DNA of 64,000 nt, taken from a virus. The translations under genes and the position numbers were made by a program. Every line of letters begins with the position of its first letter. Positions within the stretch are counted from its first letter, which is position 1. Below are positions 13,991-62,261 of the stretch, one piece after another. The notes beneath the pieces are model-generated. The model saw only the letters and a program-made list of their open reading frames with translations. It had not been told where the DNA came from and searched no databases. Location: positions 1-64,000 of IMG/VR virus record IMGVR_UViG_3300001450_009970. One strand, given 5' to 3'.

Positions 13991-15799
13991 TTAGTCAACT
14001 ATTTCATATATGTTAAAAGTATCACCTCCGCCATCATGAATTTCTAATATTTGATTTATTGATTCAGATATTGCCGGATCAATATAATCCAGTAATTCTT
14101 CTACCATTTCAGAATAATCTGAAGTATCAAAAATAGAAGTTACAGTTACACATGTCATTATTGCATCGTCATTTCCAGACTGAGCTGCATAGGATCCATT
14201 TTTAGTTCGTGAAAAGGTTGTAGCTTCTTCAATAGTTTTTATTTCCTGTATTACTAATCTATTCTTTCTAATACTTTCTTTTAATGCTTGACAATAAAGT
14301 TTTTTATTTTCACCGTTTAATCTTACACCATGTGAAGTTTTTTTAGAATTTAATCTGTGTCTATATTTTACAATTATTTCTTCGTCAAATTCATTTCTTG
14401 CAGGATAAAGTGTTTGTAGATTTTTAATTAATTCAGATCCGTATGTATTATATTCCAATACAACTCGTAAATTTTCTGGTTCAAAAATTGATACACATAA
14501 TTCATAAATAATCTTAGATAAATCTGGGATTGACATTACATTGCATCTAAATATTCCAACCTGTTTTAATTGAAAGAATTCATAAATCGATCCTGGATTT
14601 GTAATTTCCTTATGATATTTAGGGTCTATAGGAACAACCTTGAATATGTTTAAAATAGAATAATCCAGTCCCACACCCTCAGCTAAATCAATAGACAATA
14701 CAAAGAAATTTTTATTGTCCTTTAATTCATCATCTACATTAAAATCTGGATGCCATTTTAAAAATGAATAATCTAATCCAAGATCGTCCAAATCATCAAA
14801 TTCATAAAACTTAAAATGAGTTTCATGCTTTTTAAGTTTCTTTATTTCATTAGATCCTAATAATAACGAATCCGCATTTATAAATTGACAACCATATTGC
14901 TTATTAAATTCTTCTACATCACCACCAAGATTTGAAATTTCTCTTGCTTTCCAGACTTCATCACGGCCAGGCACATCCCACCAGTCTACTTTAAATCCAA
15001 CATAATCTGAATCACCATCTAGAGCATCCTGCCATAAACGCTGAAATAAATTATAGCCGTTCGGTGTTGATGTAATAATTATTTTTGATATTTCTGATGA
15101 TGATAAAGTTGGATAAACGTTACCATAAAATTCTTCTGCTATATTAGCTTCTACGTGAGCAAATTCATCTAAAAATAATAAATGAATAGTAAAACCAATA
15201 CCGGCATTTTTTGTAGTATTTTGACCCATTATTCTACATTCATTATCAAACTTCATAGACATTACATCCTTTTTGATAACTCCTGGTTTCATGAAAAATG
15301 GAAGTCCTTCAACTACAGCTCTAATCTTATCTAGAATTTCTCTAGTAGTTGCGCCTTTATTTGCAAGTAACATTACATTCTTATCAAAGTTAAAAACTAA
15401 AAACCAGGTTAAAAATATTGCTGAACAAATAGTTTTACCTACCTGTCTAGGAGCAAGACAAATATTGAATCTATTTGCCTGAAAAGATCTAAGCATATCC
15501 TCCTGATAAGGTCGTAATTCAATTTTTGTATATCCTTCGTCAGTCATTACCTGACAATATTTATTTGCAAAATATACAATATCTCTAGCACATTTCTTTA
15601 ATTCTGACATCTCCATGTCAGTATATTCATATACTATATTTCCTTTCTTATATGCACTATGCCCCTCATAAAACGGATGTGGTACTTCATATCCATTTTC
15701 AATAGCTTCTATAGTTTGTTCAACCTTTTCAGTTGTCCATACTACCCTATTGTCCTGTTCTTCTTTTTCTGGTTTAAACTTTGGTATTTTAAAACTCAT
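13991..15799 (-). CDS. 17: terminase large subunit (gp17-like)
   Basis: A 602-residue packaging motor (T4 gp17 is 610). The N-terminal ATPase has Walker A APRQVGKT (116-123) and Walker B LLFLDEFAH with the catalytic Glu, followed by the coupling motif IIITSTPNG. The C-terminal RNase H-like nuclease has its first Asp in VLSIDLAEGVGLDYS and a later Asp in GNDDAIMTCV. The 4-bp overlap with the upstream 85-residue basic tagged protein suggests coupled translation. It cuts concatemers and translocates DNA into the prohead at the portal. Confidence 0.93.
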   Translation of the reverse strand: MSFKIPKFKPEKEEQDNRVVWTTEKVEQTIEAIENGYEVPHPFYEGHSAYKKGNIVYEYTDMEMSELKKCARDIVYFANKYCQVMTDEGYTKIELRPYQEDMLRSFQANRFNICLAPRQVGKTICSAIFLTWFLVFNFDKNVMLLANKGATTREILDKIRAVVEGLPFFMKPGVIKKDVMSMKFDNECRIMGQNTTKNAGIGFTIHLLFLDEFAHVEANIAEEFYGNVYPTLSSSEISKIIITSTPNGYNLFQRLWQDALDGDSDYVGFKVDWWDVPGRDEVWKAREISNLGGDVEEFNKQYGCQFINADSLLLGSNEIKKLKKHETHFKFYEFDDLDDLGLDYSFLKWHPDFNVDDELKDNKNFFVLSIDLAEGVGLDYSILNIFKVVPIDPKYHKEITNPGSIYEFFQLKQVGIFRCNVMSIPDLSKIIYELCVSIFEPENLRVVLEYNTYGSELIKNLQTLYPARNEFDEEIIVKYRHRLNSKKTSHGVRLNGENKKLYCQALKESIRKNRLVIQEIKTIEEATTFSRTKNGSYAAQSGNDDAIMTCVTVTSIFDTSDYSEMVEELLDYIDPAISESINQILEIHDGGGDTFNIYEIVD

Positions 15800-16053
15800 T
15801 TAGCCTTTTTTAAAGTAATACTATCAACATTGACTTTTGAAACATTAACTTTATCCTTCTTTGCGACCTTCTTGATTTCCATTTCGACCTTTTTGAATAT
15901 CTTGTTTTTAACGCCTTCAAGTTCGCCACCAGGACCTAATAATTTTCTAGTAGCCTGTCCTTTTACGGCATTAGCTTTACGCTCTTTAGATTTTAATTTT
16001 GGTGGTCTTGCTCTTTCATTTAAGAATTCTTCGTATGATTGTAGATTTTTCAT
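15796..16053 (-). CDS. small basic CTS-tagged internal protein (85 aa)
   Basis: MKNLQSYEEFLNER followed by about 70 residues that are strongly Lys/Arg-rich (RARPPKLKSKERKANAVKGQ and KKVAKKDKVNVSK). Removal of the tag after LNE would leave a small, very basic polypeptide, the profile of the T4 internal proteins that travel with packaged DNA. Its stop overlaps the start of the terminase gene. DNA binding is inferred from charge only. Confidence 0.75.
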   Translation of the reverse strand: MKNLQSYEEFLNERARPPKLKSKERKANAVKGQATRKLLGPGGELEGVKNKIFKKVEMEIKKVAKKDKVNVSKVNVDSITLKKAK

Positions 16054-16061
16054 ATTATATT

Positions 16062-16652
16062 TTATAGTTCAATTGATTTTATATCATATGCTGACGGACC
16101 CCAAAATAATACTTGTTCAACATCGTCACCAAAGTGATAATTTTTAATTGCATCAGTGGATTTAAATGTAATAGGATAAGATCCCCAATGCTTTGCGCCT
16201 TTTTGTAAAGTTCCGTATTTTTCTAACATATCATCATAATCAAGACCATAGTTGTATCCAATATCTCTTTTAGGCTTATGTCGTGAAGACCAATTCATAC
16301 CTAATTTAAGATAATCAGATTCACCGTAAATAAAGCCGTTTTTAACAATATTTTGTCGAATTTTTTCTGATGATACAAAATGTACAATTAGTTTATCTGA
16401 TGGATGATCTTCAGCAGGTGCATCAAAGAAATACATAGTTGGCAGTTTACTATAGTATTTTCGGTTATTAACTTTTGTAATTAGCTTAGCTGCATCAGAC
16501 TCAGAATCAAGTTTTTCTTGAGGTAATATATGATCTTTGATCCATTTTGCAAGTGACATATTGGTTCTATCAAAATGTTTCTTTAGAACATCAGTCCTTT
16601 TTCTACTAGCAGATTCATTCAAAAATTCATCGTATGACTGTAGATTTTTCAT
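16062..16652 (-). CDS. CTS-tagged internal protein, possible ADP-ribosyltransferase fold
   Basis: A 196-residue protein with tag MKNLQSYDEFLNES. Residues 88-109 (LIVHFVSSEKIRQNIVKNGF) follow the H-x2-S-x6-I-x3-G-F pattern at the start of H-Y-E-type ADP-ribosyltransferase folds. A Tyr-rich part follows (RDIGYNYGLDYDDM), and the end has VEQVLFWGPSAYDIKSIEL, where such enzymes carry the catalytic Glu strand. T4 packages the ADP-ribosyltransferase Alt by a cleaved N-terminal peptide, so the context fits. The fold call is by pattern and needs profile testing. Confidence 0.7.
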   Translation of the reverse strand: MKNLQSYDEFLNESASRKRTDVLKKHFDRTNMSLAKWIKDHILPQEKLDSESDAAKLITKVNNRKYYSKLPTMYFFDAPAEDHPSDKLIVHFVSSEKIRQNIVKNGFIYGESDYLKLGMNWSSRHKPKRDIGYNYGLDYDDMLEKYGTLQKGAKHWGSYPITFKSTDAIKNYHFGDDVEQVLFWGPSAYDIKSIEL

Positions 16653-16653
16653 G

Positions 16654-17025
16654 TTATTTCTTTTTTATGTCATCATGTTTAGGCTTTGGTCCTTTACCTT
16701 TTAACCAATCTGCAATATCTTTATCCGCAGTTTTATATGCAGTTCCTTTTTCTGTAAATACCGTCATTCTAGCATTACCCCATGCATTAAATGCAGCCGG
16801 CTTTCCTAGCTTTTTTATGTGTGGTCTTACAGCACCCCAGTTAGTAATTGCTGCACCATATCCTCTTAAAAATGCTGCCATTAATGCATATTCTAAATCT
16901 TTTGCATTTTTAGCTCCTAATGATTTTTGTAATTTTGGATCTTTTGAAAGTTTTTCTGCTCTTGATTCTGCTGCACTTTGCTTTGCTTCATTCAAGAATT
17001 CATCATACGATTGTAAATTTTTCAT
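16654..17025 (-). CDS. CTS-tagged internal protein (123 aa)
   Basis: Tag MKNLQSYDEFLNEA, then a helical Ala/Lys-rich body (SAAESRAEKLSKDPKLQKSL; DLEYALMAAFLRGYGAAITN) and a basic end ending in DDIKKK. One base separates it from the next gene, so it belongs to the same transcript as the two tagged neighbours. No family recognised. The processed form would be about 110 residues and basic. Confidence 0.72.
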   Translation of the reverse strand: MKNLQSYDEFLNEAKQSAAESRAEKLSKDPKLQKSLGAKNAKDLEYALMAAFLRGYGAAITNWGAVRPHIKKLGKPAAFNAWGNARMTVFTEKGTAYKTADKDIADWLKGKGPKPKHDDIKKK

Positions 17026-17687
17026 ATTGTATATTGTGCTTTTGGTAGATTTTTTTTAGCAAATGTAATCCAGGTTTTAAGTACCTTATTTCTTTCAGTT
17101 TTAGTCATTAATTTTTGATCGATAAAATAATCAAGATATTCATTAAATACATCATTTAACGGTCGCTTTTCTGTTTTTGCTTGACGATACATTCCGTTTG
17201 CCATTGCTGGAACTTCATCCTTTAATAGAAAGTATTTATATAGATTTCCTTTATCTCCGCTTATTTTATTTCTAATAATCGATCCAGTTATTTTAACCTT
17301 ACTTGGACGTCTATTTTCACCGCCTTGAGTTAAATGTTCTATTTCATGCCTAGCTGCATCCTGTAAAACTGCATTTAATTTTTGATAGCTTTGCGGTTCT
17401 TTAGCCGGATCCAAAGTAACAATAAATTCTATACCATTTACTGATGGATAAGCACCAGCATCAACAATAACTCCTCGAGAATTTGATACCGCTTCACGTT
17501 TTATAAATAATTGTGCGTCATCAATAAATACCTTATCATTAAATTCACCTAAATCAAATTGTAACATTTCATGCTCTCCTTTAGGACTTGTTAATTTGAT
17601 TATTGGCCAAATAGCATCTACTATTTCACCGGCAAGTTTATCATAACTTCCTTCATTTAAGAATTGATTGTAATTTTTATATCTCAT
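17022..17687 (-). CDS. CTS-tagged protein with HExxH metallopeptidase-like motif
   Basis: A 221-residue protein with tag MRYKNYNQFLNEG. DAARHEIEHLTQGG (HEIEH at 114-118) is an H-E-x-x-H zinc site in a predicted helix; a third ligand may lie downstream (the E of LKDEVPAMANG). The preceding FIVTLDP strand and later helices fit a compact metallopeptidase. It overlaps the next tagged gene by 4 bp. If packaged, it could act on host proteins after injection or within the head. Catalysis is inferred from the motif only. Confidence 0.7.
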   Translation of the reverse strand: MRYKNYNQFLNEGSYDKLAGEIVDAIWPIIKLTSPKGEHEMLQFDLGEFNDKVFIDDAQLFIKREAVSNSRGVIVDAGAYPSVNGIEFIVTLDPAKEPQSYQKLNAVLQDAARHEIEHLTQGGENRRPSKVKITGSIIRNKISGDKGNLYKYFLLKDEVPAMANGMYRQAKTEKRPLNDVFNEYLDYFIDQKLMTKTERNKVLKTWITFAKKNLPKAQYTI

Positions 17688-33342: not shown

Positions 33343-35181
33343 TTAAATTTTGTTTGTTTTGAATCGTTTTGCTAATCCTTCAGTAACTGCATCCATATAA
33401 GAACTTGTAACTTTAACTTCGTTTATCGATTCAGAATTTGCAATTGCAGATTCATTAATCGGTTGAATTATTTCAGATCTCAAATCTCTTGTCGACCAAA
33501 AATGATCGATTTGATATTGTGATTCTAAAACACTAACAGAAGCTTGTAATTTAATTTCTTCTTGTTTGCTTTCACTTAAAGAATCATAAGACTCTTTATA
33601 TTTAGCTGGGATATTTTCCAACCAATTTAAAACTTTAGGTTCGGGTGTTGTTGCTGATTCCCATATTCTTTCAACATCTCTAGTTCCGAAGTATTTGTTA
33701 TTTTTAAATGCAAGTATCAAGTCACCTTGAGAGCTTTCATTTAATTTTGCAAATTCACTTCTCTTAGATTCCGTTACAAAATGTAGGAAATGCAAGTCCT
33801 TATCTTCAGTTACTGCTTTTTGCTTCTTAGCAGATTCAAGTAAAGTATTTATCTTAGTACTGATATCATTCTTAAAGTTATCATTACTTTCTATAATTAA
33901 ATTTTCTTTAGGTTCCGATTGCTTACTTATTCTACCATTACCTTCATTAATTAATTTTGCACCGTTAAGTTCAGCAAAATTTTCATTAATATCGTTAATA
34001 GAATGTTCGGTATATGAACCTAGAGTTTCTAGATTTTCTTTAATATATTCAGTAAAATTAGCAACATGTTCCATGTTCTCAACAATATAATCGTTATGAG
34101 AAATAAGAGTATCTACTGATTCATTAATTGTAGTTTGATATTCAAATCTTGAATTAACTTCTTCACTAATGTGTTTAGAATATTCAATTGAATTATCAAC
34201 TGATTCAGCAACCATTTTACTATATTCGATTGAATTATCAAGGTTTTCAGCCAATGATTTACTATATTCAATTCCTTGATCGGTCTTAAGAGCAACCAAT
34301 TCACTATAATCTTTAACTGATTCAAGACCTTCAACAATATAATCATTATGTGCAATTAGGTTGTCTGTATTTTCTTCAACCTTATTGATTTTTGAATTCA
34401 TTGAATTTACTTCCTTAGCAATAGTTTCAACCCACTCTACAATTTGTGATTGTTCCTTTGTATTATTAGAAGGTATATCAGATTCGTTTATAGATTTGAT
34501 TGATTCCTGGATCTTATTGAATTGTTCAGTGATATATTTTGAATATTTATCGAACTGATCCATTGAGATGAATGATTCACCTTTAGTTTCGTTTATTGCA
34601 ACTTCTGGTGCGTCAACTTGAGTTAAACCGTTATTTGTGTTATCCATTTCAAATATTTGTATTGTATCGTCGTTTTGTAAGCCAAATGATTCATTGACTC
34701 TGTTTAATTGTGCATTTTCAAATCCTGGATCTGCAACCAAATCATAAGTAAATAATCTTTTAACTTTTACATGATTATTTGATTCAACAACACCAGCTGC
34801 TCTAGATGAAATATGTATTGGAACTCCTGCATCAACTAATGCCTTTGCTTGTTTTCCAGCATCAGTATCAAGTAGCTTAATTCTACCTCTTACTTGTTTT
34901 GAAGATTTATCGTAAGATATTTCTTCTATAACATGTGATACATTTTTTAATGATACTTCGAATTGTTTTGGATGATCCAGTTCTCCTAGAATTTTTCTAT
35001 CTTTAACTTTTTTAGCTAATTCTTCCACATGAGGAACAAATTCAGCTTCATCGTAAATTCGATTGTTTTTATTTTTTGTGCCTATTTCCGAAAAAATTCC
35101 TTCCAGTATATAATCGCCATTAGCGGTTTTCTGGAATTCTGCCTCAGAAACTGATCTTTCAAGAATCAGTAAGTTTTTCAT
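33343..35181 (-). CDS. 21/22: prohead protease fused to scaffold core (gp21+gp22-like)
   Basis: About 612 residues from ATG 35181; the frame continues to a GTG at 35232 across a late element. Residues 1-165 are a prohead protease: YILEGIFSEIG, catalytic His70 in LGELDHP, Ser at 125-126 in HISSRA, and DLVADPGFENAQL. The remaining 450 residues are coiled-coil with repeated segments (SHNDYIVE..., EYSKxxAExxDNSI). Internal NESF, SINES, TINES, LINEG and AINE sites suit self-processing. It lies between portal and major capsid genes, where T4 has separate genes 21 and 22. Confidence 0.85.
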   Translation of the reverse strand: MKNLLILERSVSEAEFQKTANGDYILEGIFSEIGTKNKNNRIYDEAEFVPHVEELAKKVKDRKILGELDHPKQFEVSLKNVSHVIEEISYDKSSKQVRGRIKLLDTDAGKQAKALVDAGVPIHISSRAAGVVESNNHVKVKRLFTYDLVADPGFENAQLNRVNESFGLQNDDTIQIFEMDNTNNGLTQVDAPEVAINETKGESFISMDQFDKYSKYITEQFNKIQESIKSINESDIPSNNTKEQSQIVEWVETIAKEVNSMNSKINKVEENTDNLIAHNDYIVEGLESVKDYSELVALKTDQGIEYSKSLAENLDNSIEYSKMVAESVDNSIEYSKHISEEVNSRFEYQTTINESVDTLISHNDYIVENMEHVANFTEYIKENLETLGSYTEHSINDINENFAELNGAKLINEGNGRISKQSEPKENLIIESNDNFKNDISTKINTLLESAKKQKAVTEDKDLHFLHFVTESKRSEFAKLNESSQGDLILAFKNNKYFGTRDVERIWESATTPEPKVLNWLENIPAKYKESYDSLSESKQEEIKLQASVSVLESQYQIDHFWSTRDLRSEIIQPINESAIANSESINEVKVTSSYMDAVTEGLAKRFKTNKI

Positions 35182-56809: not shown

Positions 56810-57547
56810 TTATTTTTTATAAGGAGCTCTAACATCGATTTTACCGCCACTTAATTCTTTTGCAACTTTATCAACCTGTTCTGGTTCAATCTTTGGCATA
56901 TCCGCTCTTGGTGGTGCACCTTCTGGTGGTCCAACTCTTTGAATAGCAGCTAAGGCTTTTGCAATTGTAGCTTCACCTCTTTTTTCAAACCAAGCAATAG
57001 CTTTTTCTTTATTATAGAATTTTTTATCCATTCCTTCACCGTCATAGATTGCAGCTTTAACATTATCCATAGTTGATGTGAAAATATTAGCATCTCCAGC
57101 AACAGCTAGACCTCTTTTATTTCCTAATGCATCTCCGGCAGCTCTAAGAACTGGAACTAAATCACCAATATTTAATTCAGATTGTACTCCTGTTACTTTT
57201 GCAGAAGGATTGTTGAACATTGTAGCAGCCCATCTATGATGACCATCTAGAATTCTGTTATCTTGTGAAATAACAGCACCAAGATCTCCACCTTCAACTC
57301 CTACAATAGCCATACTTAATGCCTTAGCTAAATAAACTGCATCCTGTGATGGCTTTAATGATTTAGCTGGAATAGAAGCTTTTTTAGTTACTACTACATC
57401 GTCTTGAGTATCTCCATCTTTTTTACCAGCTTTAAAAAATTCCTTGTCATTTTTATTTCCAGGATTTGGAAATTTTGATGGATCGATTTCTTTAGTTTTT
57501 AAGCTTTCATTAATAACGAATTGCTCAAATGATATTAATTTTTTCAT
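56810..57547 (-). CDS. CTS-tagged protein with ParB/sulfiredoxin-like domain
   Basis: A 245-residue protein with tag MKKLISFEQFVINES. Residues about 70-125 (LKPSQDAVYLAKALSMAIVG, GDLGAVISQDNRILDGHHRW) match the ParB N-terminal fold, whose G-H-H-R loop binds nucleotide. Later GLAVAGDANIFTSTMDNVKA and helices follow. ParB-like nuclease or CTPase activity in a packaged protein would be unusual; only the fold motif is visible. A GATAAATAAAAT late-like box precedes the start. Confidence 0.72.
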   Translation of the reverse strand: MKKLISFEQFVINESLKTKEIDPSKFPNPGNKNDKEFFKAGKKDGDTQDDVVVTKKASIPAKSLKPSQDAVYLAKALSMAIVGVEGGDLGAVISQDNRILDGHHRWAATMFNNPSAKVTGVQSELNIGDLVPVLRAAGDALGNKRGLAVAGDANIFTSTMDNVKAAIYDGEGMDKKFYNKEKAIAWFEKRGEATIAKALAAIQRVGPPEGAPPRADMPKIEPEQVDKVAKELSGGKIDVRAPYKK

Positions 57548-57923: not shown

Positions 57924-57935
57924 TTATTTATCTTA
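57924..57935 (-). promoter_or_regulatory. late promoter element AGATAAATAAAAC
   Basis: About 20 bases before ATG 57904 on the minus strand. Confidence 0.4.
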
Positions 57936-60158
57936 AAGTGATCTATATTTCTTTTGAATAGCCTGCCAAACTTTTTCTGGTGTAGTATTTCTACCGGTAG
58001 CAAATTTATTAACGCTAGTAGAACCACGTTTATTAGGTGAAGTTATTGATAATTGAATGAAAGGTTTGTCACCAATTTCGTTATATTGGAATGCCCATAT
58101 TAATGCTAATTCATCAACTTTAACAGTGAATTCTACTGCACCATAAAAGTTTTCTTTTACATCTTCAACCTTCATATTTCCTAAATATTTGTCACCCTTT
58201 AATAAAAATTCCGTAAAAGATTTATACCAGTCGTTCGATCTTTTTTCAAATTCTGACAACGGCCATGCTTCATTAACAGATTCAAATTTCAGATTTTGAG
58301 TAACTTCTGGTGGAAGATCGTTATATTCAGAATCAATATATTTTTCTACATTATCTGGGTCTTTAACTGCTGTTAATAGTGCTGATTCTCTTTCGTCATC
58401 ACTTAATTCATCCCATTTAATTGATTTTTGAGATTTCTCGTTTAAAAATTCGTCTAGTGATTCCGCAACTAATTTCATGTTTGGCTTTGATTTTGTCTGA
58501 TTAATATTATCAAATATTCGTTGTCCAAATTTAGAAAGTTGATATGTTTTTTCACCGCTTTCATTTTTTGATACTTTAAAGTAATTCATGTTTGATTTGA
58601 ACCATCGAGTTTGATTAACTGATTTTCCTAAATCTTCTTCAACACGAATTAACATATCCTTGATTTGTTCTTCGGTCATTATATTGTTACCAATATATTT
58701 GATAATTGAATTACGTAAGGGTGCTTTTTCATTTATACGTCTAGCATCATAAATTCCATATTTACGTTTAATAGTATGTTTAGCTTCATTAACACTAACT
58801 ATCTTAGCTTGTTTTATACGTGATTTATTTACTAATTCTTTTTCTTTCGTTTCAGCTTCTTCTTTAGTTTTAAATATTCCAGATTTAGCATTTTCCCCAT
58901 CTTGGGTTTTATATTCAACTCTAAAACCTTCCCCTGATTGATTAACTGATTCAGTTATAGAATTCAACATTTCCTGTTTACTAAATACTAAGCTTTTTGG
59001 ATGACTTGAAAGTTCAAATGTAGTACTATACATAGCACTAAGTTTAGCACCAATTTCTTTACCATTTTTATCTGTTACGATATATTCATTGAAAGCGTTT
59101 GACTTTCTACCATAATCAGTAACAGTATAAACATTAGTATCTGTATTAAATTTAGATCCGATTTCTATTTTATTGAAAATTTTAGTACCTAGCATACTGA
59201 TTTTACTTCCAGAAATAGTTCCCTCATTTAAGTCATAAGATTCACTAAATAATCTTCTACCTGTTTTATCTTCTAGATGTAATTTTGCTTTAGGATATTT
59301 CTCTTGCATTACATTAAATGTAGCAGGAGCAACATCTGGAGTAGAAACTGGTTCTTGATGAATTACTTTGCCATCTTGTATAACTACAATTACTGCTGGA
59401 TAGCTTCCTTGAGTTGCAGCTTTATATACTTTACGTCTAGATGCTTCAGTAACTAATGATTCATCCATTACCATATATTTAGATGGAACTATAAATTCTC
59501 CTTGTCCACTTTTTACAATCATTCCTTTATTACCACGAGTCATCTTAATAACTTTATAAACATCGTCATAATCTAAAGAAACACCTTCCTTATCTAGAAT
59601 TTCTTCAACAAAATGTGGAGCTCCCAGAACTACAAAATCACCTTTCTTGAATTTAGATTCGTTAATTTCTTTATTTTCCTCATTTGCTAAAGGATTAGGA
59701 ATAGTAATTGATTTACCTTGATAAAATCTCTTTTTTAGTTTATCAATAGTATCATTCTTCTTTAAATAGTAAGGATGCTCATATTGATCTGAATCATCTC
59801 CTACAATAAGAATAATATGTTCTCCTTCATCAGAACTATATATTTTAAAGTCTGAACCTAATACTTTACCTTTTATATTCTTTTTAGCCTCATTTACAGA
59901 TTCGGTATATAATATTTCAGAATCAAAATTATATTTAGGACCATCTTGTTCAGCATCTTGTACATCTATAGTTCCGTTTTTATTAATATTGATAACTCTG
60001 AATTCAGTTCCAACTGAGGCACCTTTATGCATTTCTTCATCTCTATCATCGTCACCAGTTTGATATATTACAACAATATCACCGACTTTTGATCGTTCGC
60101 CATTGTAATATTTTGCAGATGCCTCATTCAAGAAGTCTTCAAATTTTTCTATTGCCAT
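57933..60158 (-). CDS. CTS-tagged polyprotein-like internal protein (741 aa)
   Basis: Tag MAIEKFEDFLNEA. Small domains are separated by sequences ending in [L/I/V]-x-E: ESVNEAKK (about 88), KEINESKF (about 165), ESLVTEASR (about 235), YDLNEG (about 311), VSVNEAKH (about 455), RINEKAP (about 472), a full internal tag-like MKLVAESLDEFLNEK (about 560-575) and FESVNEAW (about 630). Domains include KOW/SH3-like beta modules (KVGDIVVIYQTGDDD; FKKGDFVVLGAPHFV). If the prohead protease cuts these, eight or nine peptides would be released inside the head. Confidence 0.75.
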   Translation of the reverse strand: MAIEKFEDFLNEASAKYYNGERSKVGDIVVIYQTGDDDRDEEMHKGASVGTEFRVININKNGTIDVQDAEQDGPKYNFDSEILYTESVNEAKKNIKGKVLGSDFKIYSSDEGEHIILIVGDDSDQYEHPYYLKKNDTIDKLKKRFYQGKSITIPNPLANEENKEINESKFKKGDFVVLGAPHFVEEILDKEGVSLDYDDVYKVIKMTRGNKGMIVKSGQGEFIVPSKYMVMDESLVTEASRRKVYKAATQGSYPAVIVVIQDGKVIHQEPVSTPDVAPATFNVMQEKYPKAKLHLEDKTGRRLFSESYDLNEGTISGSKISMLGTKIFNKIEIGSKFNTDTNVYTVTDYGRKSNAFNEYIVTDKNGKEIGAKLSAMYSTTFELSSHPKSLVFSKQEMLNSITESVNQSGEGFRVEYKTQDGENAKSGIFKTKEEAETKEKELVNKSRIKQAKIVSVNEAKHTIKRKYGIYDARRINEKAPLRNSIIKYIGNNIMTEEQIKDMLIRVEEDLGKSVNQTRWFKSNMNYFKVSKNESGEKTYQLSKFGQRIFDNINQTKSKPNMKLVAESLDEFLNEKSQKSIKWDELSDDERESALLTAVKDPDNVEKYIDSEYNDLPPEVTQNLKFESVNEAWPLSEFEKRSNDWYKSFTEFLLKGDKYLGNMKVEDVKENFYGAVEFTVKVDELALIWAFQYNEIGDKPFIQLSITSPNKRGSTSVNKFATGRNTTPEKVWQAIQKKYRSL

Positions 60159-60175
60159 AATATAATTTTCTTTTA

Positions 60176-61030
60176 TTATTTATCTTCAGATAGTTCGTCT
60201 TTTAATTGAGGATAATATTGATGTGTAGTTGTATCAGTCATGGATTTGAATGATTTTATATCATCTTCTATTAAAGCTTTACGAACTTTAGATGCACTAA
60301 TATTATCATCAGTACGTTTTATTTCATGAGCTTTAAATTCTGGATCTACATTTAAATCCAATCTATAAGAATCTTTTTGAATTTGACCGCTATAGGCTTT
60401 TAATCTATCTGATCCAGTACCCCACAAAATAGGCTCATATTCAGGACGTAATTCATTATAAATTGTATCTATACCCGCTCTTGAAATAGTTCTGAATCCT
60501 TCTATAAATTTATGTTTCTTTGCAAGATCGTTAAATATTTGCTCTATTAAACCTTCACTAAACGGTGTTTTTTCCTTGTTAATTTTCTTTGCACGCACCA
60601 TAAGTACTATTACAGGATATCCATTTTCTTCGGACAAAGATTTAAGAACTTTTATATGTCCTAGCGTCGGAGGTTGAAAACGTCCCGCAATAATATTAAC
60701 TTTTTTATTGCCAGGTTCTGTTGAATCTACCTTTAAAGCTTCATTTAAAGATTCAGATATTTTTCCGGTTTTAGATACTTTATAATATGTAGGTATTTTA
60801 TCCCAATCTTTACCGTTAGTTTTTATGCCTGAATACATTTGATTTTTATCACTTTTCCATGCACCACCAGTTCCATCTTTATATTTGATCATGGTTGGTG
60901 TTTCTTCATAAAACCACCAATCGCCATCAGAATGCTGTGCTAAATATCTTGCCCAATCTGGGATATTTTTAAATTTAGGAAATTGTTTTCCTTCATTTAT
61001 GAAATCAAAAAATCTTTTGAATCTATTCAT
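60176..61030 (-). CDS. CTS-tagged nucleotidyltransferase (NMN adenylyltransferase-like)
   Basis: A 284-residue protein with tag MNRFKRFFDFINEG. An N-terminal Trp/Tyr-rich domain (DWARYLAQHSDGDWWFYEET) is followed by a second cleavage-type site SESLNEA (93-99), then a nucleotidyltransferase: VNIIAGRFQPPTLGHIKVLK (T-x-G-H at 122-125) and DDNISASKVRKAL (I-S-x-x-x-x-R near 245). It resembles archaeal-type NadM. It may act in NAD repair together with the adjacent ligase-like protein. Probably packaged as tag plus two mature parts. Confidence 0.8.
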   Translation of the reverse strand: MNRFKRFFDFINEGKQFPKFKNIPDWARYLAQHSDGDWWFYEETPTMIKYKDGTGGAWKSDKNQMYSGIKTNGKDWDKIPTYYKVSKTGKISESLNEALKVDSTEPGNKKVNIIAGRFQPPTLGHIKVLKSLSEENGYPVIVLMVRAKKINKEKTPFSEGLIEQIFNDLAKKHKFIEGFRTISRAGIDTIYNELRPEYEPILWGTGSDRLKAYSGQIQKDSYRLDLNVDPEFKAHEIKRTDDNISASKVRKALIEDDIKSFKSMTDTTTHQYYPQLKDELSEDK

Positions 61031-61031
61031 G

Positions 61032-62261
61032 TTAATTGTTTAATTTTAGAAATTCAGAAAATGATAAAGTAACATCAGATTCATTTGTATTTTTAGCTAT
61101 TGTAACATTATCAATATTTGTAATGATTTGATTGATGTCATTAATCATAGCCTTATCTATAACCTGTGTTGCTCGTTTACGTAATTTTTTAAATGTTCCA
61201 ATAAGAACTTTAAAAGTATCATGATAAAGCGGCTTAGACTTTATTAATTTTAATGCTTCTTTATTATCTATAAATTTATAGTTAACTTTGAATTCAGGTA
61301 TTTTTGCAAAATCTGGAGTATCAAATTCAAATCCATCTATGACAGATTTCTTTTTAGATACAAAGTCTACAAATATCTGTGACATTAAATCGATATATCT
61401 ATCGTCTTTTGTATTACCCGATATTGAATAAGAATCAACACCATTAATTCTCATAAATTCAACCATTTGCATAATAGCAATTGCCGTTGAATCCGGTGTT
61501 TGTCTTGGCTTTTGTCTGTCTTTTGATTTTAATCTAGCATTTGCAGTAAAAAGTGGATCGACCATTTTAGCACTAAATTCTTCTTTAGGACCGCTTATGA
61601 ATTTAAAAACAATTCCTTCAATAGGCTTGTCTAGATCATTTTGTAATGCAGTTTTTTTAAGCTTTGGATTAATTATAGATAGAATATATCTTACAAATGA
61701 AGTAGTTTCAAATTTCTTAACTAGATCTTCAAATGGTGTTTGAATAAATTCCAATAGGTCTTCTCTTTGTTGTGGTTTTAATTTGCCACTAAAATATACA
61801 GGCGGTTCATCAACATTAATTATATTAGCCCATTTACTAAGAACCTTTGGATCGGTAATAACTTTCTTGGTTCTTCCACCTGAATCAACAATTTTTATAT
61901 CTGTAAGAACTAAAGAATTTTTAGGCATTTTATCATATAACGTATTGACTGGCTTCTTGTTTACAAAATATTCAAATCCAAATCTAAAATCTGTTGGCAA
62001 TAATTTCTTTTTAGAATCTGCAATAGCCTCAATAAATTCAATAGGCCTTTCAAATACAGACATCATAGTTCTTTCAACCTTACTAATAGGATTTTTAGGA
62101 TCTCTTTTATAGAATAAAATTGATTGATCCGATTGCTTTTGAAATTCAAATCTAGTACCATCCAATTTCTCAGATACTAATACATAATTATTTAAAAGTG
62201 ACTTAACAAATTCTTCTCCTTTTTTAGAAGATATATCAAATAAGTGTGGTAATCCGGCCAT
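61032..62261 (-). CDS. nucleotidyltransferase/ligase-like protein
   Basis: A 409-residue protein. VLVSEKLDGTRFEF gives the K-x-D-G motif I (Lys32), FRFGFEYFV motif III (93-100) and IEGIVFKF motif IV (214-221) of covalent nucleotidyltransferases (DNA and RNA ligases). The C-terminus is helical, ending VTLSFSEFLKLNN. It lacks the N-terminal tag, although its C-terminal SFSEFLKLN is reminiscent of it. Sits one base from the nucleotidyltransferase gene, as often seen in marine phages. DNA versus RNA ligase cannot be decided. Confidence 0.7.
   Translation of the reverse strand: MAGLPHLFDISSKKGEEFVKSLLNNYVLVSEKLDGTRFEFQKQSDQSILFYKRDPKNPISKVERTMMSVFERPIEFIEAIADSKKKLLPTDFRFGFEYFVNKKPVNTLYDKMPKNSLVLTDIKIVDSGGRTKKVITDPKVLSKWANIINVDEPPVYFSGKLKPQQREDLLEFIQTPFEDLVKKFETTSFVRYILSIINPKLKKTALQNDLDKPIEGIVFKFISGPKEEFSAKMVDPLFTANARLKSKDRQKPRQTPDSTAIAIMQMVEFMRINGVDSYSISGNTKDDRYIDLMSQIFVDFVSKKKSVIDGFEFDTPDFAKIPEFKVNYKFIDNKEALKLIKSKPLYHDTFKVLIGTFKKLRKRATQVIDKAMINDINQIITNIDNVTIAKNTNESDVTLSFSEFLKLNN

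What the first reader, a model, noticed from the sequence alone, without database searches (positions are those of the whole stretch)
16062..16652. Tagged protein with ADP-ribosyltransferase-like pattern
LIVHFVSSEKIRQNIVKNGF and the C-terminal VEQVLFWGPSAYDIKSIEL parallel the first and last core strands of H-Y-E ADP-ribosyltransferases. T4 packages the ADP-ribosyltransferase Alt with a cleaved N-terminal peptide and injects it to modify host polymerase.
Basis: inference. Interest (0 to 1): 0.7.

Follow-up and report, generated by a model that had tools for sequence, protein, structure and literature searches.

The report
Head-packaged phage ADP-ribosyltransferase-like protein
A T4-like virus of bacteria carries a gene for an enzyme-like protein with a predicted ADP-ribosyltransferase fold, addressed into the virus head by a short removable tag, and nearly the same gene sits in otherwise very different viruses, each with the front of its tag in that virus's own style.

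Summary
The ORF at 16062-16652(-) is real: 196 aa, with an N-terminal tag (MKNLQSYDEFLNE|S) shared by 17 window ORFs and about 29 in a longer contig of the same phage. The tag resembles the T4 capsid-targeting sequence plus a prohead-protease site; a T4-type head protease is present. The body matches no Pfam, PHROGs, NCBIfam or PDB sequence, but belongs to an unannotated phage family found here in about 44 viral ORFs and two Pseudomonas megaplasmids. A deep alignment gives a confident core model (pLDDT above 90 over most of it); nearly all its closest solved structures are ADP-ribosyltransferase (ART) or related NAD-using folds. Family members are fused to ART-PolyVal, PARP, NUDIX and Acb1 domains in giant polyvalent proteins. 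Unexpectedly, the body and protease-site codons are 98.6% identical in DNA to a gene in a phage whose terminase is only 41% identical, and 90% in a third lineage; in each, the front of the tag follows the resident phage. Probably an injected ART-fold effector traded as a cassette. Activity and target are untested.

The parts
16062..16652 (-). Whole ORF, 196 aa, tagged ART-fold protein
16614..16652 (-). N-terminal tag MKNLQSYDEFLNE (residues 1-13): capsid-targeting-like peptide ending in a predicted prohead-protease site FLNE|S
   Evidence: Shared by 17 window ORFs; T4 CTS described in PMC9026906
16057..16628 (-). DNA block shared at 98.6% (572 nt) with a phage whose terminase is 41% identical; starts at the EFLNE codons of the tag and ends just past the stop codon
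16065..16433 (-). ART-fold domain, residues 74-196 (model range matched by solved ART structures)
16380..16382 (-). His91, strand 1, invariant in the family (the H of H-Y-E ARTs)
   Evidence: also in unascertained plasmid homologues
16254..16256 (-). Tyr133 in the GYNFAF strand; Y in 26/30 and F in 4/30 family members
16113..16139 (-). YHxGDxxxQ loop, residues 172-180: His173, Asp176 and Gln180 (Gln in the position of the ART catalytic Glu)
   Evidence: H, D and Q also kept in plasmid homologues that were not found through the motif
17022..17687 (-). Tagged protein with a RHEIEH zincin-like motif; a 34-35% identical tagged homologue lies directly upstream of the same ART-fold gene in L003/L004
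16654..17025 (-). Tagged neighbour, 123 aa, no family match
15796..16053 (-). Tagged neighbour, 85 aa, basic, no family match
33343..35181 (-). Head maturation (prohead) protease, phrog_207 E 4.5e-37, the likely tag-cleaving enzyme
13991..15799 (-). Terminase large subunit, next to the tagged cluster

Best explanation
The gene encodes a head-packaged effector of a T4-like phage. Its N-terminal tag recruits it into the prohead core; the phage's gp21-type protease cuts after FLNE (inferred); the freed protein, a short helical region plus an ADP-ribosyltransferase-fold domain, is ejected with the DNA and uses NAD+ to modify a host or defence component at the start of infection (inferred). The domain is a new ART-superfamily family whose conserved site is H91, Y133, H173, D176 and Q180 rather than H-Y-E. 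The body with its protease site moves as a one-gene cassette between distant phages and is joined to each phage's own targeting residues. Shown by computation: the tag, the family, the predicted fold, the domain fusions and the tag/body mosaic. Inferred: packaging, cleavage, injection, NAD use and target.
For: Tag on 17 window ORFs and about 29 ORFs in the longer contig, far above shuffles. T4-type head protease, major head protein, portal and tail sheath in the window. Family found by motif in about 44 viral ORFs, with homology outside the motif at about 5e-13 and domain scores of 109-210 bits in other members. AF2 with 34 sequences: mean pLDDT 78.7, most core blocks 92-95, against 43.9 with 5 near-identical sequences. 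VIA-align: essentially all 50 listed chains are ART-superfamily or ART-like NAD-using proteins (Scabin Z 5.7, TreX 5.6, PltA 5.2, KptA 5.2, pierisin, tankyrase). BFVD top matches: phage ADP-ribosyltransferase, probability 0.99, and RNA 2'-phosphotransferase, 0.92. The domain is fused with ART-PolyVal, PARP, NUDIX, DUF3990, RES and Acb1 domains in polyvalent proteins. Mosaic: 98.6% DNA identity over 572 nt starting at the tag's EFLNE codons against 41% aa identity in the terminase. Purifying selection on the core: dS 0.33, dN 0.019 against L003.
Against: No sequence-level match to any named ART family, even by profile, and hhalign against ART-PolyVal segments fails. Best Z of 5.7 is middling, and no Foldseek hit in PDB or BFVD reaches E<0.001. 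The catalytic Glu is replaced by Gln, so activity could be altered or lost. No virion proteomics; packaging rests on likeness to T4. Y172, H173, D176, Q180, F183 and G185 look invariant partly because the search pattern required them.
Confidence: 0.62

Rival explanations
1. It has the ART fold but is not a protein-modifying transferase: an NAD+ glycohydrolase, a nucleic-acid-modifying ART, or a catalytically dead ART fold that acts by binding, like T4 IPI, which inhibits a restriction enzyme after injection.
For: Gln in place of the catalytic Glu. Structural neighbours include KptA, Tne2 and the DNA-targeting pierisin. T4 internal proteins Ip1-3 act as specific inhibitors of GmrSD nucleases (PMC12373910).
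Against: Strong conservation of H91, Y133, H173, D176 and Q180 across deeply divergent members suggests an active site. The phage ART AcrIF11 is reported to have H-F-H-D residues instead of H-Y-Y-E (PMC12421852), so loss of the Glu need not mean loss of activity.
Confidence: 0.25
2. It is an ordinary internal structural or core protein of the phage head with no role in the host cell.
For: Tagged internal proteins and core proteins share cleavage signals in T4 (PMC9026906).
Against: The body is traded almost unchanged between phages with diverged core genes, which is unlike a structural part; relatives lie in effector-type polyvalent proteins.
Confidence: 0.07
3. The ART resemblance is a modelling artefact and the fold is something else.
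For: Middling Z scores and no profile-level sequence match.
Against: High core pLDDT; essentially all 50 rows of the structural list are of one superfamily or its NAD-using relatives; BFVD independently ranks an ART and an RNA 2'-phosphotransferase first; the fusion partners are ARTs.
Confidence: 0.06

Closest known systems
Phage T4 Alt (packaged, injected mono-ADP-ribosyltransferase)
   Same: Predicted ART fold, short N-terminal propeptide ending in a LxE-type site, T4-like head with gp21-type protease, predicted delivery with DNA.
   Different: No sequence relation was found; H...Q-type site instead of Alt's R-S-E type (Alt class from own knowledge); 196 aa instead of a large protein with both ends processed; tag shared with many other proteins of the phage.
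T4 internal proteins IPI, IPII, IPIII with capsid targeting sequence
   Same: Short N-terminal targeting peptide with a protease site; unrelated bodies behind one tag; diverse, exchangeable cargo (PMC3012670, PMC9026906, PMC12373910).
   Different: About 29 tagged ORFs in one phage; the cargo is ART-fold; the junction within the tag is visible at DNA level between distant phages.
ART domains of polyvalent proteins (PF18760, Tox-ART-HYD2 clade; PMC5512222)
   Same: Same superfamily by structure, physically fused in L054, L063 and L072, predicted injected effectors.
   Different: Not alignable by profile; the H-Y-D site of that clade is replaced by H, Y, H, D and Q; here a stand-alone tagged protein.
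AcrIF11 (phage ART anti-CRISPR, PMC12421852)
   Same: Small phage ART with a non-canonical catalytic set (H-F-H-D).
   Different: Sequence relation not tested; not described as packaged in the head; known target Csy1.

Membership tests
ADP-ribosyltransferase superfamily (fold) | Split beta-sheet core seen in ARTs | tested here: met
   AF2 core pLDDT mostly 92-95; essentially all 50 VIA-align rows are ART or ART-like NAD-using proteins, best Z 5.7; BFVD top hits ART and RNA 2'-PT. Predicted model only.
H-Y-E class ART (diphtheria toxin/PARP type) | His in strand 1 | tested here: met
   H91 invariant, 30/30 family members and both plasmid homologues
H-Y-E class ART (diphtheria toxin/PARP type) | Tyr in strand 2 | tested here: met
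   Y133, Y 26/30 and F 4/30; position assigned from secondary structure, not from coordinates
H-Y-E class ART (diphtheria toxin/PARP type) | Glu (or Asp) at the start of strand 5 | tested here: not met
   Invariant Gln180 there; E179 varies among the members
ART superfamily (activity) | NAD+-dependent transfer of ADP-ribose | not testable with these tools
   Needs purified protein
Known ART Pfam/NCBIfam families (ART, DarT, RES, KptA, ART-PolyVal) | Match to the family profile | tested here: not met
   No ART hits for the target or for 34 aligned members
T4-type capsid-targeted internal protein | N-terminal CTS-like peptide shared with other proteins of the phage | tested here: met
   17 window ORFs, about 29 in the longer contig
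T4-type capsid-targeted internal protein | Prohead protease and LxE-type cleavage site | tested here: met
   FLNE present in all copies; phrog_207 protease E 4.5e-37. Cleavage itself not tested.
T4-type capsid-targeted internal protein | Presence in the virion and ejection into the host | not testable with these tools
   Needs virion proteomics

The most novel reading that the evidence does not exclude
A new clade of phage ART enzymes with a non-canonical H/Y/H/D/Q site is circulated among distant T4-like phages as a one-gene cassette whose junction lies inside the capsid-targeting tag: the protease site travels with the cargo, while the targeting residues stay with the resident phage. The tag would then be a phage-specific packaging address, and each genome an interchangeable arsenal of up to tens of head-loaded effectors.
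Probability: 0.5. Interest if true: 0.78.

Novelty: new variant of a known kind. Interest (0 to 1): 0.62.

Why it matters
It adds an unannotated ART-fold family that Pfam and PHROGs miss and that sits beside anti-CBASS and NAD-related domains in phage polyvalent proteins, so it is a good place to look for counter-defence enzymes. The tag/body mosaic gives a direct handle on an open question: how phages acquire new head-packaged proteins. It predicts that the first eight or so residues alone decide into which phage's head a cargo goes, which can be tested by tag swaps in a laboratory phage.

Tried and rejected
Close-relative scans with the target, its core and two narrow alignments gave only the same four viral loci. 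tblastn in isolate phages gave two hits at E=4 in Microbacterium phages, rejected as chance in short overlapping ORFs. Plasmids with the target: none. A tight C-terminal DNA motif gave one new locus, rejected because its frame shows no homologous protein. First AF2 model with five near-identical sequences had pLDDT 43.9 and was not used. Profile comparison with ART-PolyVal segments failed. Two genome-contig scans found no relatives, so bacterial chromosomes could not be surveyed. A chimeric assembly as the source of the mosaic was considered and rejected: four other contigs carry the gene, the tag styles match their own genomes, and the block ends at the gene's ends. Foldseek on the PDB gave no hit under E 0.001, so the structural claim rests on VIA-align and BFVD. 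Recalled sequence patterns were used only to design the motif scan; nothing is claimed from memory beyond that except where marked.

Full report
Observation. The ORF at 16062-16652 on the minus strand is as described: 196 aa starting MKNLQSYDEFLNES and ending VEQVLFWGPSAYDIKSIEL. The window is part of a 108,411-base IMG/VR virus record; a 166,532-base contig in IMG/VR contains the same region at 100% identity. The terminase is closest to huge uncultured phages, Sphingomonas phage PAU and Tenacibaculum phages, and the window holds a T4-type head maturation protease, major head protein, portal and tail sheath.

The tag. Seventeen of 106 window ORFs and 33 of 296 in the longer contig match the tag pattern, against means of 1.0 and 2.8 in shuffles; about 29 of the 33 look genuine by eye. 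The bodies behind the tag differ. In T4, ten residues suffice to target IPIII into the head, residues 4 and 7 matter most for targeting and 8 and 10 for cutting, and the IPs and Alt lose short propeptides to gp21 (PMC9026906; PMC5694885). FLNE|S fits such a site. Packaging and cutting are inferred from this likeness.

The family. No Pfam, PHROGs or NCBIfam model matched the target; the PADLOC matches at E 0.003-0.008 were weak and not followed. Close-relative scans gave only four loci. A degenerate DNA scan for the motif YHxxDxxxQ[VI]xFxG gave 50 stretches, of which about 44 contain a clear new relative. Because the motif was required by the scan, I built an HMM from the region upstream of it alone: the target scores about 5e-13, shuffles 0.2 or worse. 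Two Pseudomonas megaplasmids hold distant members found without the motif. Pfam and PHROGs have no model for the family among the members scanned.

The fold. With five near-identical sequences AlphaFold2 gave pLDDT 43.9. With 34 diverse sequences it gave 78.7 overall and 92-95 over most of the core; a loop around residues 110-131 is weaker (model numbering is one less than protein numbering). VIA-align on Foldseek's candidates listed 50 chains, essentially all ART-superfamily or ART-like NAD-using proteins, with Z up to 5.7, covering model residues 74-195. Z of this size alone could be a common arrangement; the uniformity of the list and the independent BFVD result, a phage ADP-ribosyltransferase at probability 0.99 and an RNA 2'-phosphotransferase at 0.92, make the ART reading likely. 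Foldseek on the PDB gave nothing under E 0.001.

The site. H91 is invariant in strand 1, Y133 is Y or F in the GYNFAF strand, and the last core strands start with an invariant Gln180 where H-Y-E enzymes have Glu; E179 is not conserved. The plasmid members, free of motif bias, keep the strand-1 His, H173, D176 and Q180 but not Y172. Phage ART AcrIF11 is reported to use H-F-H-D (PMC12421852), so a non-canonical set can be active. Without coordinates I could not measure the geometry.

Domain company. In L063 the domain precedes ART-PolyVal, a zincin-like HELFH motif, DUF3990, RES-like and Acb1 anti-CBASS domains. In L054 it lies between a PARP-like and an ART-PolyVal domain with NUDIX and GNAT; in L072 it follows 2'-5' ligase/Acb1-like, ART-PolyVal and PARP domains; in L058 it follows NUDIX. 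Such polyvalent proteins are predicted to be injected, and ARTs are their commonest protein-modifying enzymes (PMC5512222, PMC9503650). Some stand-alone members have CTS-like N-termini, for example MIKFKDFLLE and MKFIKDWKQFLE; this is suggestive only.

The mosaic. In contig L002/G002 the body is 98.6% identical in DNA over 572 nt, from the EFLNE codons of the tag to just past the stop, although the terminases are 41% identical and the other shared proteins mostly 25-77%. In L003 and L004 it is 90%, where other shared proteins are about 25-57%. The front of each tag is local: MKNLQSYDEFLNE here, MKRLNEFLNE where neighbours read MKSLNEFLNE, MKYINTYxSFLNE where neighbours read MKHIKAYESFINE. The codons TTTTTGAATGAA for FLNE are identical in all four phages although other tags in the same genomes use other codons. 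So the protease site seems to travel with the cargo and the targeting residues stay. The core is under purifying selection (dS 0.33, dN 0.019 against L003). T-even internal proteins are known to be diverse behind a conserved tag (PMC3012670, PMC12373910); I found no description of this junction in the papers read, which is not proof that none exists.

Conclusion. The most likely account is a head-packaged, injected ART-fold effector of a new family, traded between phages as a cassette. The fold, family and mosaic rest on computed results; packaging, cleavage, NAD use and the target are inferred.

Noticed in passing
window 60176-61030 (-): A tagged protein (MNRFKRFFDFINEG) with a nucleotidyltransferase domain matching cytidyltransferase and, weakly, nicotinamide-nucleotide adenylyltransferase families; a packaged NAD-related enzyme would be an odd partner for an ART.
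   Followed up: partly
window 17022-17687 (-); L003 3110-3808; L004 3755-4453: Tagged proteins with a zincin-like RHExEH motif, 34-35% identical, next to or near the ART-fold gene in two phage lineages with different tags; the pair may travel together.
   Followed up: partly
window 56810-57547 (-): Tagged-looking protein (MKKLISFEQFVINES) with a 63% identical counterpart in the G002 phage behind a different tag (MKSFNEFLNEK): perhaps a second case of cargo sharing with a changed tag.
   Followed up: no
window 57933-60158 (-): Tagged 741-aa protein with several internal SVNEA/LNEG-like sites, as if it were cut into several peptides by the head protease.
   Followed up: no
L063 8326-14676 (-): 2117-aa open-ended polyvalent protein combining the new domain, two YHGT-type ARTs, a zincin motif and an Acb1 anti-CBASS domain.
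   Followed up: partly
L085 4417-10314 (-): 1966-aa open-ended protein with two copies of the new domain and a weak SprT-like match.
   Followed up: no
window 61032-62261 (-): Weak RNA ligase match (E 3.7e-05, below the curated cut-off), between tagged genes.
   Followed up: no
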